Assembly (NCBI GenBank): GCA_022826755.1
Contig: JAJDUG010000035.1
Span: 1-38,418, forward strand
DNA length: 38,418 bases
DNA from: Acidobacteriota bacterium
Lineage (GTDB): Bacteria > Acidobacteriota > Terriglobia > Versatilivoradales > Versatilivoraceae
Direction of reading: 5' to 3'
This document shows positions 29,549 through 38,418 of the stretch, one piece after another (within the stretch, counting starts at the first letter, position 1; each line of letters opens with the position of its first letter). The notes beneath the pieces were generated by a model. The model worked only from the letters and a program-made list of their open reading frames with translations, was not told where the DNA came from and searched no databases. A program made the translations under genes and the position numbers.

Positions 29549-29643
29549 CTGGCTCTCTGGAAAGCAGGAGGCATCCGGTCGACGTTGCCCACCGGATCGC
29601 CGGGAAGATGACGTTCGAACCCATCCTCAAGGAGAACCACTCA

Positions 29644-30018
29644 ATGGATCGAAGAAAATTCACTCAGGTCATGGGAGCCGCGGTGGCCGGCATGGTGGCG
29701 GGTTCCAAGGCGGTCAGCCAAGCCGATTCCCTGTTGTTGGCCGATGAAGACAAGAAGTCCAAGCACGTCTGCAAGGGCCGCAACGCGTGCAAGGGCCAGG
29801 GCGGCTGCGCCAGCGGCGACAACGGCTGCGCCGGCAAGAATTCCTGCAAGGGCAAGGGCGGCTGCGCCACGGTAGCCAAGCACGCCTGCAAGGGCCAGAA
29901 CGAGTGCAAGGGCCAAGGCGGCTGCGCCAGCGGCGACAACGGCTGCGCCGGCAAGAATTCCTGCAAGGGCAAGGGCGGTTGCGCCGTTCCCGTCCACGGA
30001 GTCGAAAAGAAGAAATAG
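29644..30018 (+). CDS. Tat-signal Cys-rich RiPP precursor (bufferin-like)
   Basis: 124 residues from the ATG at 29644, preceded by AAGGAG at good spacing; an upstream in-frame ATG at 29608 is less likely. The N-terminus MDRRKFTQVMGAAVAGMVAG is a twin-arginine signal. The mature part has twelve cysteines at 43, 49, 55, 62, 68, 74 and 82, 88, 94, 101, 107, 113. These are two copies of C-x5-C-x5-C-x6-C-x5-C-x5-C. Most Cys sit in CKG or GGC contexts separated by Gly, Lys and Asn, and no other ordered domain is visible. The next genes encode an MNIO enzyme and its DUF2063 partner, the pair that modifies cysteines in bufferin-type RiPPs, which then bind copper or other metals. Modification, export and metal binding are inferred from that context. 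A plain secreted metallothionein-like protein is the alternative. Confidence 0.8.
   Translation: MDRRKFTQVMGAAVAGMVAGSKAVSQADSLLLADEDKKSKHVCKGRNACKGQGGCASGDNGCAGKNSCKGKGGCATVAKHACKGQNECKGQGGCASGDNGCAGKNSCKGKGGCAVPVHGVEKKK
29770..29982 (+). repeat. Tandem 117-nt repeat inside the Cys-rich peptide gene
   Basis: Six-Cys units at 29770-29865 and 29887-29982 lie 117 nt (39 codons) apart. Counting by eye, they differ at 5 of 96 positions. The connecting 21 nt between units encode ATVAKHA. The near identity points to a recent internal duplication or gene conversion. Confidence 0.9.
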
Positions 30019-30138
30019 CCTGACAGCCACCAGGACTGACCGGTCCCCCGGCACTTCCGACCGTTGGGCGCGACACGCGACTTCGCGGGCAGGAAGCGGG
30101 AGCGGCTGCGTCCGTCCGTTTGGACCGGGAGGTCCCTC

Positions 30139-30999
30139 ATGGGCAGGAATCGGTGGAATTTACCCGACCTGGGGTTCGGGATCGGTCTCCGTACCGTCCA
30201 CTACAGCTACATTCTGGCCAACCATCCCCCCATCGACTGGTTCGAGATCCTGTCGGAAAATTACATGGATACGGAGGGCCGCCCGCTGTACGTGCTGGAC
30301 CAGGTGGCGGAACGCTACCCGGTCGTGCTCCACGGCGTTTCCATGTCGGTGGGAAGCACCGACCCCTTGAACCTGGACTATCTGAAGAAACTGAAGGCCC
30401 TGGCCGACCGTACCCGGGCCCACTGGGTCTCGGACCACCTCTGCTGGACCGGCGTGAGCGGAATCAACGTCCATGACCTGCTGCCAATGCCCTACACCGA
30501 CGAATCCCTGCGCTACACCATCGAGCGGGTGAAGGCGGTTTCCGAGATCCTGGAGCGCCCCCTGGTCCTAGAGAACCCCTCCACCTACCTGGAGTTCGGG
30601 ACCTCCACCTGGACTGAAGTGGACTTTCTCTCCACCCTGGCCCGAGAGGCCGACTGCGGAATACTTCTGGACGTGAACAACGTCTACGTGAGCTGCTTCA
30701 ACCACGGCCTGGACCCGGAAGCCTTCATCGACCGAGTCCCGGCCGACCGCGTCGTTCAATACCACCTGGCCGGACACACCCACAAGGGAACTCATATTCT
30801 GGACACCCACAGCGATCACGTCATCGATGAAGTCTGGTCCCTCTATCGACGTTCCTGCCAAAGAACCGGCGGCGTGGCCACCCTGCTGGAGTGGGACGAG
30901 AACATTCCCAGCTTCGAGGTGGTTCACGCCGAAGCCCTGAAGGCCCGCCGGCACCGCGGCCTTCCCGAGCCGGACCAGCAGAGGGCCTATGGCACCTGA
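30139..30999 (+). CDS. MNIO enzyme (DUF692), precursor-modifying oxidase
   Basis: 286 residues from the ATG at 30139, with GGGAGG upstream; the open frame starts earlier but without family similarity. The DUF692 TIM-barrel is clear: GFGIGLRTVHY, DWFEILSENYMD, VVLHGVSMSVGS, VSDHLCWTG, PLVLENPSTYLEF, ILLDVNNVYVS, YHLAGHTHKG, TLLEWDENIP. Probable metal ligands include His65, His100, Glu145, Asp179, Asn180, His209, Asp222, His224 and Glu251; I chose them by position in conserved motifs, without alignment. MNIO proteins (MbnB, TglH, BufB/HvfB) use a multinuclear iron centre and oxygen to remodel precursor cysteines. It lies 120 nt after the precursor gene and overlaps the DUF2063 gene by 11 nt. 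Confidence 0.93.
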   Translation: MGRNRWNLPDLGFGIGLRTVHYSYILANHPPIDWFEILSENYMDTEGRPLYVLDQVAERYPVVLHGVSMSVGSTDPLNLDYLKKLKALADRTRAHWVSDHLCWTGVSGINVHDLLPMPYTDESLRYTIERVKAVSEILERPLVLENPSTYLEFGTSTWTEVDFLSTLAREADCGILLDVNNVYVSCFNHGLDPEAFIDRVPADRVVQYHLAGHTHKGTHILDTHSDHVIDEVWSLYRRSCQRTGGVATLLEWDENIPSFEVVHAEALKARRHRGLPEPDQQRAYGT

Positions 31000-31828
31000 T
31001 CTGGGCGTCACCCAGAAGTGGATGCAGGCGGTCATCCTGCATCCCGGCTCCGACCGCCAGGCGGTAGCTTCCGCCGAGGCCCGGAAGCTGGTGGCGCCGA
31101 GCCGGTTTCCGCGCCTGATACGGCCTTCCCGAACGCTGGACTCCTTCGAAAGAATCGGCATCTACCGCGGCATGTACCTGGCCCGCTTGCAGGAAGCCCT
31201 GGAGGCCGACTTTCCCGGACTCCGGCACTTTCTGGGTCGGAAGCGCTTCTCCGACCTGGTCCGGGGCTATGTCGACCGCTATCCCTCCCAAAGCTATACC
31301 TTGAACCGCCTGGGAGATCATCTTCCCGAATATATCCGGAGCAGTCCCGGGATTGTGCGGAAGGACTTCCTGTACGAGCTGGCTCGCTTTGAACTGCTGA
31401 TGAGCCGACTGTTCGATGCCGAGGAATCCCCTGTTCTCACCCCCGAGGCCATTGCCGCGGTACCCCCCGAAAGCTGGGAGACAGCCCGTCTCAAGCCCGT
31501 CGCCGCCCTTTCGGTGCAGGCGCTTCGATACCCGGTGGGGGCTTACCTCGAGGCGGTGCGCCAGGGCAATCCAAGGCCGGCCACCCGGCGCAAGAATCAG
31601 TGGGCGGTGGTCTATCGGCGCCAATTCGCACTCCGATGGCTGGATCTGCCCCGTCCCGGGTATCGGCTGCTCCATGCTCTGGTCAATGGCGTGCCGCTCG
31701 GAGAGGCGTTGAGCGGGGTCTTGAGAGGCGGGCGCCAGCCGGTCGGAGAGGTGCAGCTCTTTTCCTGGTTCCGCGGCTGGGTGACCGAAGGGTTGTTTCA
31801 GGCGGTTGAGCTCGAAGACCCGGCATGA
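30989..31828 (+). CDS. DUF2063 partner protein of the MNIO enzyme
   Basis: 279 residues; the ATG lies inside the end of the MNIO gene (11-nt overlap). The N-terminal half is a DUF2063-type domain, with SFERIGIYRGMYLARLQEAL, FPGLRHFLGRKRFSDL and DHLPEYI. The C-terminal half (about 165-265) has strands and helices seen in BufC/HvfC-like proteins. These proteins bind the precursor leader and bring it to the MNIO enzyme, as MbnC does for MbnB. The role is inferred from family and overlap. No DoxX-like membrane gene, common in bufferin operons, follows here. Confidence 0.88.
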   Translation: MAPDLGVTQKWMQAVILHPGSDRQAVASAEARKLVAPSRFPRLIRPSRTLDSFERIGIYRGMYLARLQEALEADFPGLRHFLGRKRFSDLVRGYVDRYPSQSYTLNRLGDHLPEYIRSSPGIVRKDFLYELARFELLMSRLFDAEESPVLTPEAIAAVPPESWETARLKPVAALSVQALRYPVGAYLEAVRQGNPRPATRRKNQWAVVYRRQFALRWLDLPRPGYRLLHALVNGVPLGEALSGVLRGGRQPVGEVQLFSWFRGWVTEGLFQAVELEDPA

Positions 31829-32303: not shown

Positions 32304-33619
32304 GACAAGGTCGCCTACAGGTTTTCCTTTAACGGGACCAAGCCCACCGGACGCCATCCCCAAAAGGCCCTCTCGGCCTCTTTCCTCCGCTCCGCTCCGC
32401 CCGGAAAACACGCTGACGGCAATGGCCTCTACCTCTTCGTCCAGCCCACCGGAACCCGCAGCTGGATTCAACGCCTCGTCATCCGTGGCCGCCGCCGTGA
32501 GCTCGGACTCGGCGCCCTCGCCCTCGTTCCCCTGGCCGAGGCCCGGGAGAAGGCGCTCGCGAACCGCAAGCTGGCCCGTGAGGGCGGAGATCCACTTGCC
32601 GAGAAGCGATGCACCCAGGGCATCCCCACCTTCGCCGAAGCGGCTTCGCTTGTGCTGGAGCAGAAGCAGGCCGGCTGGCGCAGTCGGGACCACGCCCGCG
32701 AGTGGCTGTCGAGCCTGAAGCGGTACGCCTTCTCGCGGATCGGCAAGGTGCCGGTCTCCGAGGTCACGAGCGCCGACGTGCTTGAGATCCTCACGCCCAT
32801 CTGGCACCGGAAGGCGGACACGGCCCGGCGGGTGCGCCTGCGCCTGCGTGCGGTCCTGGAATGGGCCGTTGCCATGGAACACAGGATCGACAACCCATGC
32901 GACCGGATCGGACCGGTGCTGGGTGTCCAGAAACACGTTGCCCAGCACGTGCGGGCCTTGCGCCATCGGGAGGTAGCCGCGGCGATCGAGGCGGTGCGGG
33001 GATCGGCGGCCTTGCCGGCCGCCAAGCTGGCCTTCGAGTTGCTGGTGCTGGCGGCAGCCAGGTGGGGCGAGGTGCGGTGGGCCGAGTGGGCAGAGATCGA
33101 TCGCAGCGGGAGGGTATGGACCATTCCGGCCAGGCGGATGAAGACCAACCGCCAGCACCGGGTGCCGCTGTGCGGACGCGCCCTGGAGATTCTTGAGGAG
33201 CCGAGGCACTCGGAGAGGAGACAGGTCCGCTGGTGTTCACCCATGGGAGCGGGAAGGCTCTCGACGCCCATCAACTGCGGTGGATGGTGCGCGAGCTTGG
33301 GATTGCGGCCGTGCCGCACGGGTTCAGATCCAGTTTCCGGGACTGGGCGGCCGAGGAGACGGATCATCCCCGGAAGGTGATCGAGGCGGCCCTGGCGCAT
33401 GTGGTCCGCAACCGGGTCGAGGCGGCCTACGCCCGCTCGGACCTGTTCGAGCGCCGGCGCCGCCTGATGGACGACTGGGCCCGTCATTTGGCCCAAGAGA
33501 CGGGGGAGGATCCGGAGCCCGTGGAGGAAGTAGACCCCTGGATCTTGCCGCAGTGCGTTGCAGGGTACCGAACAGACTCATCAAGTTCTCACCAACAAAG
33601 TCTCTATATTCACCCTTAA
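32304..33619 (+). pseudogene. Decayed tyrosine recombinase (phage/island integrase)
   Basis: The coding frame opens after a TGA at 32301. A typical integrase N-terminus appears from 32331 (GTKPTGRHPQKALSASFLRS, then HADGNGLYLFV and SWIQRLVIRGRRRELGLG), but there is no ATG, GTG or TTG in frame until a GTG at 32652, far into the protein. The catalytic domain has the box I Arg (AARWGEV), the Lys region (RRMKTNRQHRVPL) and, after a one-base shift at about 33203-33208, HGFRSSFRDWAAEE (H-x-x-R), AHVVRNRVEAAYAR (His and the Tyr nucleophile). The second frame runs from about 33209 to 33619. Active-site residues survive on both sides of the break. No start and one frameshift make it non-functional as it stands, unless the assembly is wrong. 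Confidence 0.85.
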
Positions 33620-33966: not shown

Positions 33967-35703
33967 ATGAAAGTCCGATTCGGCGAACTTGAAACAACGT
34001 ACTCAGCGCGGGGGAACCCCACTTACCGCATTGAGATGTGGCATGACGGGCTGAAGAAGCATCGTCAGATCAAAAGTACCGAACTCGAAGTCGTTGAACG
34101 CAAGAAGCAGCTTCAGGCTGAAGAATGGGAGTCAAAATGGGAGGCGGTAGAAGCTAAGGAGGCAGCCCGGGAGGTACAAGCCGAAAAAAAGGCACTGGCT
34201 AGCGAGCGGTCGATCGAAGCAAGAGCGAATCTGGATCAACTTGAACAGACGCTTGAGCACACGTTATCTGTCGACGACGTCATTGATTGGGAACAACTCA
34301 AAGACACGAGCCCATTTCCGGAGCCCCGACCCAAGAAACCAAGGGCGATCAAAGAACCAAGTCCGCCAACCTACCCAAACCAACCGTCACGAGATGAACC
34401 TAGATTCAATGCCAAATTTGGGCTTTTTGAATTCCTGATTCCCTCGTGGGGCCAAGCGGAGGAGCAACGGGCATCCGATCTCTACAAAAAAGCATATGAC
34501 AAATGGCTTTTGCAGACGGAGCATCTTGAGGAACGGCATCGCAAGGCAATGAATAGACATGCCGACCAAGTGGAAAAACAACAAAGCGATTCAGCAAAGA
34601 TGGTCGCAGCCTGGGAAAAACGACGGGATGCATTTCTTGCGACACAGCGTCACACAAATGCCGCCATCGATCAACAAAGAGAACGATACGAGGCAGGCAG
34701 ACCCGAGGCAATCGAAGAGTACTGTGATCTGGTTTTGTCTCGGTCCACATATCCTGACTGGATGCCGCAGGAGTTCGAACTTAGTTATATCCCGGAGAGT
34801 TCTACACTCCTCGTTTCGTATTCGCTCCCGTCCGTCGACGCGATCCCACGACTCCGGGAAGTTGCGTATATACAGAGTCGTGATGAGTTTAACGAGAAAG
34901 AGCTTTCTGATCCACAGGTGCGGAAGCTCTATGATTCGCTTGTGTACCAAATCACTCTCAGGACTGTTCATGAACTGTTCGAGTCCGACCAATTGGGTGC
35001 GTTCGATTCGGTGGTCTTCAACGGCTACGTCACATCAGTTGACCGCAGTACGGGACAAACGTCTACGGCTTGCATCCTTTCTCTGCAATCAATTCGTGAG
35101 GACTTCCTGAAAATCAACCTCGCCCAGGTGGACCCCAAAGCATGTTTTAAAGCCTTGAAGGGTGTCGGGAGTTCAAAGCTTCACAGCCTCACGCCTATCG
35201 CTCCGATCATGGAGATGCGCCGAGAGGACGGACGATTTGTGTCATCTCGAAATCTCGCAGACACGCTCGACGATTCTGTCAATCTCGCGGCGATGGACTG
35301 GGAGGATTTCGAGCATCTGATTCGAGAACTCTTTGAACAGGAATTTAGTTCCGGTGGCGGCGAAGTGAAGGTCACACAGGCGAGTAGGGATGGCGGCGTG
35401 GATGCCGTTGCCTTCGATCCAGATCCCATTCGCGGCGGAAAGATTGTCATTCAAGCGAAGCGTTACACGAATACCGTCGGCGTGGCGGCGGTACGAGACC
35501 TCTACGGAACGGTCCTAAATGAAGGTGCCACGAAGGGGGTTTTGGTTACCACGTCCGACTACGGTCCAGATGCGTATAACTTCGCCAAGGATAAGCCTTT
35601 GGTCCTCATGAATGGCGCGAACCTACTCCATCTCCTTGGAAAACACGGCCATCAGGCACGGATTGATATCAAGCAAGCGAGAAAACAGCAGGACGAGCAG
35701 TAG
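33967..35703 (+). CDS. Mrr-type restriction endonuclease with coiled-coil N-terminus
   Basis: 578 residues; the ATG is preceded by GGAGG. Residues 40-110 and about 170-240 are strongly charged helices (coiled-coil), separated by a Pro-rich linker (SPFPEPRPKKPRAIKEPSPP). A middle region (about 260-430) has no name I can give, although SRSTYPDWMPQEFELSYIPE looks like a conserved start. The C-terminal ~145 residues are the Mrr/PF04471 nuclease: DWEDFEHLIRELFEQEF, DGGVDAVAFDPDP with catalytic Asp479, and IVIQAKRYTNTVG with the Q-x-K pair Gln496/Lys498, followed by GVLVTTSDYGPDAYNFA. Mrr enzymes cut modified or foreign DNA. No methylase or specificity gene adjoins it, so a methyl-dependent or other stand-alone role is likely. 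Base composition is clearly lower in GC than the core. Confidence 0.82.
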   Translation: MKVRFGELETTYSARGNPTYRIEMWHDGLKKHRQIKSTELEVVERKKQLQAEEWESKWEAVEAKEAAREVQAEKKALASERSIEARANLDQLEQTLEHTLSVDDVIDWEQLKDTSPFPEPRPKKPRAIKEPSPPTYPNQPSRDEPRFNAKFGLFEFLIPSWGQAEEQRASDLYKKAYDKWLLQTEHLEERHRKAMNRHADQVEKQQSDSAKMVAAWEKRRDAFLATQRHTNAAIDQQRERYEAGRPEAIEEYCDLVLSRSTYPDWMPQEFELSYIPESSTLLVSYSLPSVDAIPRLREVAYIQSRDEFNEKELSDPQVRKLYDSLVYQITLRTVHELFESDQLGAFDSVVFNGYVTSVDRSTGQTSTACILSLQSIREDFLKINLAQVDPKACFKALKGVGSSKLHSLTPIAPIMEMRREDGRFVSSRNLADTLDDSVNLAAMDWEDFEHLIRELFEQEFSSGGGEVKVTQASRDGGVDAVAFDPDPIRGGKIVIQAKRYTNTVGVAAVRDLYGTVLNEGATKGVLVTTSDYGPDAYNFAKDKPLVLMNGANLLHLLGKHGHQARIDIKQARKQQDEQ

Positions 35704-36080
35704 TCGAAGATTGCGGAAGCACGTGACCCAGGTTGCCAAAGTAACGACGCGGCTCGCACCCAGGAACTGTTTGGCGCCGTCGTAAGCAACCACCATCAGG
35801 GAATTCGTCCGACGGTGTCTTGCCCCCCGAATCCGCGAGCTTTGCCGGGGGCAGGCTGCTATTTCCAGGGACATGGCATAGCAGAGCACCTCGGAACGCG
35901 TCCTGGACGCGTTTCCCTCTCAGAGACCGCAGGTCTCGCCGCCTGTGGGGAAACTGGAAGGGTCGGCTCGCTCAGCGTTCCTGTGGTCGCCATTCCGTCT
36001 GGGCCAACCGTCCCTCCCGTGCGGAGCGCCGTGCGAGGCGGGTGCAGCGAGGCCGGCGCCGCAACGCGAAGTGCCGGGGA
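35704..36080. other. Non-coding stretch containing direct-repeat copy A
   Basis: Between the Mrr gene and the hairpin cluster I find no gene with a known family. The stretch contains copy A (35823-36006), described separately. A minus-strand open frame at 35623-35889 overlaps the Mrr gene end and looks spurious. Confidence 0.4.
35823..36006 (+). repeat. Diverged direct repeat, copy A
   Basis: About 184 nt, shared with copy B (38071-38251) in the same orientation, from GAATCCGCGAGCTTTGCCGG to TGTGGTCGCCATTCCGTCTG. A translatable core begins TGGCATAGC and runs 45 codons without indel relative to copy B. Its frame reads WHSRAPRNASW then PLRDRRSRRLWGN. The two copies bracket the darT-NADAR pair. 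Confidence 0.85.
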
Positions 36081-38070: not shown

Positions 38071-38251
38071 CCCCCTGAATCCGCCAGCTTTGCCGGGCAG
38101 GCTGGACATTCTCACTCTCTGGCATAGCACAGCACCCCGAAACGCCTCCTGGACTGATTCCCCTCTCAGGGACCGCAGGTCCCGCCGTCTGTGGGGAAAC
38201 CGGAACGGCCGGCTCGCTCAACGGTCCCGTGGTCGCCATCCGGTCCGGGCG
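38071..38251 (+). repeat. Diverged direct repeat, copy B
   Basis: About 181 nt, the partner of copy A at 35823-36006. It is alike over its whole length apart from small indels before the shared TGGCATAGC. The 45-codon core reads WHSTAPRNASWTDSPLRDRR, then SRRLWGNRNG. By eye there are 22 base differences from copy A in the core, 14 at third positions of this frame. Confidence 0.85.
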
Positions 38252-38418
38252 AATGGTGCCGATAGCAACTGTCCGCCAACGTAAGCGTTCGGTCAAGCCG
38301 GTATCCGGCGTTACGGCAGCCGGACAAGCATTGTCGAACAGCGAGCCGATCCGGTCCGGGCGCCCTCCGTGCACAGGGGACATCGACTGGTGCCGGCCGT
38401 CGACAACGCCAGCGTCCG
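38252..38418. other. Window end without a recognised gene
   Basis: GC-rich sequence after copy B that runs off the window. Open frames on both strands here are unconvincing. No similarity to the sequence beyond copy A (hairpins) is apparent. Confidence 0.3.

What the first reader, a model, noticed from the sequence alone, without database searches (positions are those of the whole stretch)
33967..35703. Solitary Mrr-type nuclease with long coiled-coil and unnamed middle domain
Only the last quarter is a known nuclease. The first 430 residues (coiled coils, Pro-rich linker and a separate folded region) are not explained. It has no methylase partner and an atypical base composition, and it sits between an integrase and a toxin-antitoxin pair, so it is a good candidate for a stand-alone anti-phage nuclease with its own sensor.
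Basis: partly seen in the sequence, partly recalled or inferred. Interest (0 to 1): 0.55.

Follow-up and report, generated by a model that had tools for sequence, protein, structure and literature searches.

The report
Nuclease with a shared front module
This gene makes a lone DNA-cutting protein, probably an anti-virus defence of bacteria, whose unexplained front three-quarters turns out to be a separate module that also occurs next to a known virus-entry-blocking nuclease and, in remote form, in tellurite-resistance operons.

Summary
The ORF at 33967-35703 (578 aa) has a C-terminal Mrr_cat nuclease with intact D479/Q496/K498 and about 430 residues that no Pfam model explains: two long helices (coiled coil), a Pro-rich linker and a confidently predicted alpha/beta middle domain without a clear PDB match. 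It is solitary, lower in GC than its surroundings, and lies behind a broken integrase.

The architecture itself is not new: PADLOC's "mREase_IV" profile covers residues 43-561, and relatives occur in many phyla.

What I did not find in print is that the N-terminal region is a transferable module. It occurs without the nuclease directly upstream of SNIPE (PD-Lambda-1) genes in four loci, is remotely related to DUF4236 proteins of ter operons, and a few Mrr-type members carry an N-terminal membrane helix, as SNIPE does. The middle domain is acidic in 60 of 61 relatives, so modified-DNA reading is not favoured.

Best explanation: a SNIPE-like, location- or contact-gated anti-phage nuclease, with the N-module as adaptor/sensor and Mrr_cat as cutter. 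Defence and sensing are inferred, not shown. SNIPE pairing is a minority arrangement (2 of 14 in genomes; 0 of 80 viral-contig SNIPE loci).

The parts
33967..35703 (+). CDS, 578 aa: N-module plus Mrr_cat nuclease
   Evidence: GGAGG 10 nt before the ATG
33991..34077 (+). residues 9-37: small three-stranded N-terminal segment; absent from many relatives, whose match begins near residue 20
   Evidence: model; match ranges
34084..34245 (+). residues 40-93: first long helix (coiled coil)
   Evidence: model
34246..34440 (+). residues 94-158: conserved L..TL..DD..DWE.LK motif, Pro-rich linker and the 146-168 stretch that is net basic in 55 of 61 relatives but neutral here
34441..34692 (+). residues 159-242: second long helix
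   Evidence: model
34699..35214 (+). residues 245-416: acidic alpha/beta middle domain (helix, four strands, helix, two strands), shared with SNIPE-paired and DUF4236 proteins
35287..35637 (+). residues 441-557: Mrr_cat PD-QxK nuclease; D479 at 35401-35403, Q496 at 35452-35454, K498 at 35458-35460
   Evidence: fold match AspBHI/MspJI

Best explanation
A single-gene anti-phage (or anti-mobile-element) nuclease that works like SNIPE. The N-terminal coiled coil plus acidic middle domain is an adaptor/sensor that docks the protein at, or recognises, a protein of the infection machinery and so brings the C-terminal Mrr_cat PD-QxK nuclease onto incoming DNA. Shown here: the domain anatomy, intact catalytic residues, and that the N-module is an independent unit which elsewhere is encoded without a nuclease directly upstream of SNIPE genes, is remotely related to DUF4236 proteins of ter operons, and in some Mrr-type members carries an N-terminal membrane helix. 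Inferred: that it defends, that the module binds a protein rather than modified DNA, and that gating is by location or contact.
For: Module without nuclease directly upstream of SNIPE/PD-Lambda-1 genes in 4 loci: L108, L137, L121, L267; expected chance neighbours about 7e-5 and 3e-4 in the two genome sets, 1 seen in each. The middle domain alone matches (1.4e-35 for L108), so this is not coiled-coil similarity only. N-terminal hydrophobic helix in Mrr-type L119/L122, L095 and L090. Middle domain net positive in only 1 of 61. DUF4236 proteins of ter operons related: profile-profile E 1.2e-16, context; ter operons are reported to give phage resistance (PMC8193136, passages). SNIPE mechanism and variable N-terminal adapter region: PMC13190303, passages.
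Against: No activity data. 12 of 14 distinct SNIPE genes in the genome sets and 80 of 80 SNIPE loci of viral contigs have no module beside them. The window protein has no membrane helix and lacks the basic 146-168 patch of its relatives. The module is not related to SNIPE's DUF4041. PADLOC labels the family methyl-directed.
Confidence: 0.45

Rival explanations
1. A genuine type IV (modification-dependent) restriction enzyme: the middle domain or coiled coil reads modified bases and Mrr_cat cuts nearby, as in MspJI, AspBHI or EcoKMrr.
For: PADLOC label mREase_IV; nuclease domain closest to AspBHI Z 12.0 and MspJI Z 11.6; no methylase beside it, as expected of type IV.
Against: Middle domain acidic in 60 of 61 and without a fold match to a known modified-base reader in the lists (a missing match excludes nothing); the module also occurs with SNIPE and DUF4236, not only with an Mrr nuclease.
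Confidence: 0.25
2. An abortive-infection nuclease: the module senses infection (a phage protein or metabolite) and Mrr_cat degrades DNA generally, killing the cell.
For: Separate conserved sensor-like domain with invariant N352, G353, G363, C393; Mrr_cat domains occur in PADLOC profiles of other defence proteins (PDC-S02, ZorD).
Against: No immunity or regulatory partner is conserved; membrane-helix members and the SNIPE pairing speak for local action.
Confidence: 0.18
3. Not a defence protein: a nuclease of integrative elements or of DNA repair that travels with mobile DNA.
For: Integrase remnant beside the window gene; recombinase or integrase families are shared by 3 of 85 loci each and a recombinase sits next to a plasmid relative; no phenotype known.
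Against: Rare and patchy (11 of 396, 18 of 396, 8 of 299 genomes) with no conserved partner; links with SNIPE and ter operons.
Confidence: 0.12

Closest known systems
PADLOC mREase_IV, profile PDLC03663 ('restriction endonuclease' in plasmid annotation)
   Same: Same protein family over residues 43-561 of 578, E 1.1e-71
   Different: The label asserts methyl-directed restriction, which is untested for this architecture here; the profile also matches nuclease-less module proteins
SNIPE (PD-Lambda-1), PMC13190303
   Same: Single elongated protein, helical front part and C-terminal nuclease; the N-module is encoded beside SNIPE in 4 loci; some Mrr-type members have an N-terminal membrane helix
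   Different: Mrr_cat instead of GIY-YIG, no DUF4041, no membrane helix in the window protein
DUF4236 proteins of ter (tellurite) operons
   Same: Coil, linker and middle domain are homologous
   Different: DUF4236 at the N-terminus, no nuclease, multigene operon
MspJI / AspBHI modification-dependent enzymes
   Same: Nuclease fold, Z 11.6 and 12.0
   Different: Their N-terminal SRA-like reader (PMC12707154, passage) was not found here, though the searches cannot exclude it
EcoKMrr
   Same: Mrr_cat with a PD-QxK site
   Different: EcoKMrr has a winged helix in front (PMC12707154, passage); here there is an alpha/beta domain and long helices
CoCoNuTs (PMC11090510, search listing with start of abstract only)
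   Same: Coiled coils joined to a nuclease, type IV label
   Different: A branch of McrBC systems; no NTPase found in this protein and no partner gene

Membership tests
Mrr_cat nucleases (PF04471) | Profile score over the curated cut-off | tested here: met
   113.7 bits against 21
Mrr_cat nucleases (PF04471) | PD-QxK catalytic residues | tested here: met
   D479, Q496, K498 in 61 of 61 aligned sequences
Type IV restriction enzymes (PADLOC mREase_IV) | Sequence family over most of the length | tested here: met
   43-561 of 578, profile 39-527 of 544, E 1.1e-71
Type IV restriction enzymes (PADLOC mREase_IV) | Cuts modified DNA only | not testable with these tools
   needs an assay
MspJI family | N-terminal SRA-like modified-base reader | tested here: inconclusive
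   no Pfam hit at E<=10; not in the fold lists, which does not exclude it
EcoKMrr-type | Winged helix directly before Mrr_cat | tested here: not met
   the region before Mrr_cat is a helix / four strands / helix / two strands domain; no other Pfam hit
SNIPE / PD-Lambda-1 | DUF4041 domain | tested here: not met
   no hit at E<=10; hhalign of module against SNIPE alignment probability 2.9%
SNIPE / PD-Lambda-1 | GIY-YIG nuclease | tested here: not met
   nuclease is Mrr_cat
SNIPE / PD-Lambda-1 | N-terminal membrane helix (59-66% of homologues by PMC13190303) | tested here: not met
   best 19-residue hydropathy 0.76 in the window protein; 2.6-2.8 in L095, L119/L122, L090
Anti-phage defence systems | Reduces phage infection | not testable with these tools
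   needs a phage challenge
CoCoNuTs / McrBC | McrB-type NTPase in the protein or beside it | tested here: not met
   no NTPase domain in the protein; no recurring partner in 85 loci

The most novel reading that the evidence does not exclude
Residues about 40-416 are the prototype of a general phage-entry adaptor: one module that evolution has paired in cis with an Mrr nuclease, in trans with the SNIPE GIY-YIG nuclease, and with DUF4236 in ter operons. It would recognise a shared feature of phage injection, and would explain both how lone Mrr nucleases avoid host DNA and why ter operons block phage.
Probability: 0.22. Interest if true: 0.78.

Novelty: new variant of a known kind. Interest (0 to 1): 0.52.

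Why it matters
If right, a large family now filed as methyl-directed restriction enzymes would instead tell self from non-self by place or protein contact, as SNIPE does, and SNIPE would have a second, overlooked subunit in some bacteria. It would also give a concrete handle on the unexplained phage resistance of ter operons. All three links can be tested with one- or two-gene constructs in laboratory strains.

Tried and rejected
Housekeeping domain: none found by Pfam at E<=10, by PDB sequence search of the protein (best E 0.38) or of the middle-domain profile (best E 0.018, an intein, over 44 positions, taken as chance), by Foldseek against the PDB (no match at E<=1e-3) or VIA-align 2 (top Z 7.0, sex-pheromone cAM373 precursor, inside the noise range stated by the tool). 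BFVD gave two hits at E<=1e-3 with TM 0.45 and 0.28 to viral proteins of unknown function. A weak or missing match does not prove a new fold. In the whole-model list the nuclease domain filled nearly all rows.

Module = DUF4041: rejected. Conserved partner gene of the Mrr form: rejected; apart from the family itself the most shared neighbour family occurs in 6 of 85 loci and reads as an ABC-transporter ATPase (the function is my reading of the sequence; 4 duplicate loci were left out beforehand).

Other membrane-helix candidates: L005/L113 and L055 also passed the hydropathy threshold, but the helix lies in an N-terminal extension of uncertain start and the sister sequence (L004, L049) was not flagged, so I did not count them.

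Other nuclease-less modules not counted as SNIPE pairs: L123/L120 (distant, DUF4236-like clade, no SNIPE seen), L115/L162 (long odd ORF), L139 (truncated, zinc-ribbon-like N-terminus), L134 (nuclease in another frame), L140/L149 (interrupted).

Tree: only the quick tree finished (114 rows; 47 of 111 inner branches unresolved). L108 and L171 (the G874 module) are sisters, the G337 module lies elsewhere but unresolved, and L267 was not in the tree, so I claim no number of origins. DUF4236 rows are long branches of unsure place.

Genome searches are samples, one genome per species (396, 396 and 299 genomes). Several SNIPE loci were only about 3 kb, enough for an adjacent gene; wider stretches were read for the four SNIPE loci without a module in the window's phylum (L163-L166). 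Chance expectations assume 4000 and 3500 genes per genome.

Literature: eight searches: DUF4236 (one paper, not read), DUF4041, Mrr/coiled-coil/type IV, ter operons, SNIPE/accessory/Mrr, Mrr-cat/coiled-coil, mREase_IV/PD-Lambda-1. Nothing in the listings or passages that I saw describes this module or its link with SNIPE or ter. I read passages only of PMC13190303, PMC9519451, PMC12707154, PMC8193136 and PMC12904381. The library lacks most subscription papers; I recall a 2012 comparative study of ter systems (not seen) that could mention the DUF4236 proteins.

Full report
WHAT IS THERE. The ORF at 33967-35703 is real: ATG start behind GGAGG, 578 codons, no internal stop. Pfam recognises only Mrr_cat at 441-557 (E 6.6e-33, 113.7 bits against a cut-off of 21) and the related NA-iREase1. 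In an alignment of 61 sequences D479, Q496, A497 and K498 never change. The AlphaFold2 model (mean pLDDT 89.3) gives a small three-stranded N-terminal segment (9-37), a 54-residue helix (40-93), a linker, an 84-residue helix (159-242), a folded middle domain and the nuclease. Predicted alone, the middle domain has pLDDT 93.4 and pTM 0.87, with the order helix, four strands, helix, two strands. The nuclease domain is closest to AspBHI (Z 12.0, 3.3 A over 128 residues) and MspJI (Z 11.6, 2.6 A over 123). The middle domain alone has no PDB match at E<=1e-3; its best VIA-align Z is 7.0, 4.2 A over 105 residues, which the tool's own note calls usual for models without a clear match.

SURROUNDINGS. 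Gene GC is 52.0% against 59.8% for window 1-31800. The gene follows a tyrosine-integrase remnant whose C-terminal part has slipped into another frame. About 1.0 kb downstream, on the other strand, lie a NADAR-DarT1 antitoxin (E 1.9e-77) and a DarT toxin (E 6.9e-16). Among 85 related loci no neighbour family, other than the protein itself, is shared by more than 6, so neither the integrase nor the toxin-antitoxin pair belongs to the system. The host is probably an Acidobacteriota: contig 12 of G182, 'same phylum' as the window, has the length of the Holophagales contig of L004.

FAMILY. A scan of the species genomes gave 166 pattern matches, of which 143 encode relatives (80 kept), in many phyla, the best 57-59% identical; 9 more came from viral contigs. 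PADLOC's mREase_IV profile PDLC03663 covers 43-561 of 578 at 1.1e-71. So the architecture is known and is labelled a type IV methyl-directed restriction enzyme. The N-module profile (A2) is found in 11 of 396 genomes of the window's phylum, in 18 of 396 of the phylum of G477 (reached through L017, an Actinobacteria record) and in 8 of 299 of the phylum of G479 (reached through L015, Ureibacillus). Of 6 other genomes of the window's genus, 5 have no match to the whole protein and 1 has a weak nuclease-domain match.

THE FRONT PART IS A MODULE OF ITS OWN: NEXT TO SNIPE. A 415-aa protein on a Kocuria rosea plasmid matches the N-module over coil, linker and middle domain (whole-module profile 1.4e-59, middle domain alone 1.4e-35; four proteins searched) and has no nuclease. 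The next gene overlaps it by one base and is a SNIPE / PD-Lambda-1 protein (PADLOC 2.1e-96; DUF4041 plus T5orf172/MUG113). The same pair occurs in G874 (L137: 421 aa plus 393 aa, 1-nt gap, PADLOC 5.4e-109), in G337 of the window's own phylum (L121: 388 aa plus 514 aa, 36-nt gap, PADLOC 2.7e-158) and in a viral contig (L267: 4-nt overlap, module gene interrupted, PADLOC 2.3e-98). With 11 modules and 5 DUF4041 genes in 396 genomes, and 18 and 10 (over the cut-off) in another 396, about 7e-5 and 3e-4 chance neighbours are expected, assuming 4000 and 3500 genes per genome; one was seen in each set. Against this, the pairing is a minority habit: 12 of 14 distinct SNIPE genes in those genome sets have no module beside them (four weak DUF4041 matches, L178-L181, gave no SNIPE hit and were dropped), and none of 80 SNIPE loci from viral contigs has one. 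In L108 and L137 the SNIPE protein has no hydrophobic helix in its first 120 residues; in L121 it has one.

IN TER OPERONS. Stretches within about 87-411 of the protein matched DUF4236 proteins at about 1e-6 in the plasmid search. Profiles make this firm: whole-module profile 1.1e-24 and 1.1e-16 for an E. coli and a P. aeruginosa protein; profile against profile, 167 columns of the middle domain, probability 98.8%, E 1.2e-16 (five rows, one of which, L123, has no DUF4236). The E. coli and Raoultella genes lie with ATP-grasp, phosphoribosyltransferase, StiP and HpcH/HpaI genes and ter genes; the P. aeruginosa gene lies with VWA and TerD genes. A paper on E. coli ter operons states that they are also involved in resistance to phages and pore-forming colicins (PMC8193136, passages). 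That the DUF4236 gene is needed for this is not shown.

WITH A MEMBRANE HELIX. Mrr-type members L119/L122 and L095 (sisters on a long branch) and L090 begin with a strongly hydrophobic helix (19-residue means 2.74, 2.61, 2.84). The window protein does not (best 0.76).

WHAT THIS SAYS ABOUT MECHANISM. [quoted passage not shown] the N-terminal region is variable and may be an adapter, and 34% of homologues lack a predicted membrane helix (PMC13190303, passages). The present family keeps the plan 'helical front part plus C-terminal nuclease' with other parts. Its middle domain is acidic (net positive in 1 of 61, median -7), which fits protein binding better than DNA reading. The only regularly basic piece of the front part is 146-168 (55 of 61 net positive), and the window protein is neutral there. 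I therefore favour a location- or contact-gated nuclease (0.45) over a modification-dependent one (0.25), an abortive nuclease (0.18) or a non-defence role (0.12). None of this is shown by experiment.

MEMBERSHIP AND NOVELTY. It is a member of the Mrr_cat nucleases and of PADLOC's mREase_IV sequence family. It is not SNIPE (no DUF4041, no GIY-YIG) and not of the EcoKMrr plan. The label 'methyl-directed' is unproven, and the PADLOC profile also matches the nuclease-less module proteins. The protein is of a known kind; the module relation is the new part, as far as the searches named under Tried and rejected show.

VERDICT. Observation confirmed; interpretation partly supported; a new variant of a known kind, with an unexpected and testable link between three phage-related systems.

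Noticed in passing
window 35823-36014 and 38071-38260: An imperfect direct repeat (27 nt at 93% and 141 nt at 83%, spacing about 2247) flanks the DarT1/NADAR pair, which also has low GC (50.8%); it looks like a separate insertion.
   Followed up: no
window 29608-31828: A Cys-rich repeat protein (29608-30018), an MbnB/TglH/ChrH enzyme (E 1e-107) and a DUF2063 protein in a row: probably a peptide-modification cluster of the bufferin kind (that name is recalled, from no call).
   Followed up: no
window 32652-33619: Tyrosine integrase broken by a frameshift: the part up to 33380 reads in one frame, the C-terminal part 33233-33619 in another.
   Followed up: partly
L108:4755-6002, L137:1225-2490, L121:7146-8312: PADLOC's mREase_IV profile matches these nuclease-less proteins (1.9e-41, 1.7e-28, 2e-57), so automatic annotation would call them restriction enzymes.
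   Followed up: yes
L014:10465-11272 (also L008): A second, partial copy of the protein (70% identical over residues 325-578) lies about 0.7 kb downstream of the full copy in a Planctomycetota contig.
   Followed up: no
L156:224-826 and 1429-2580: A DUF4236-type module protein lies about 0.6 kb from an Mrr-like nuclease with a hydrophobic N-terminus on the other strand.
   Followed up: no
L139:946-2082: Module protein with a zinc-ribbon-like N-terminus (four CxxC pairs), cut short before the nuclease.
   Followed up: no
L108:6002-7375 and L267:6223-7539: Both of these module-paired SNIPE proteins start with a Pro/Trp-rich stretch (PPPGWP) in place of a membrane helix.
   Followed up: no
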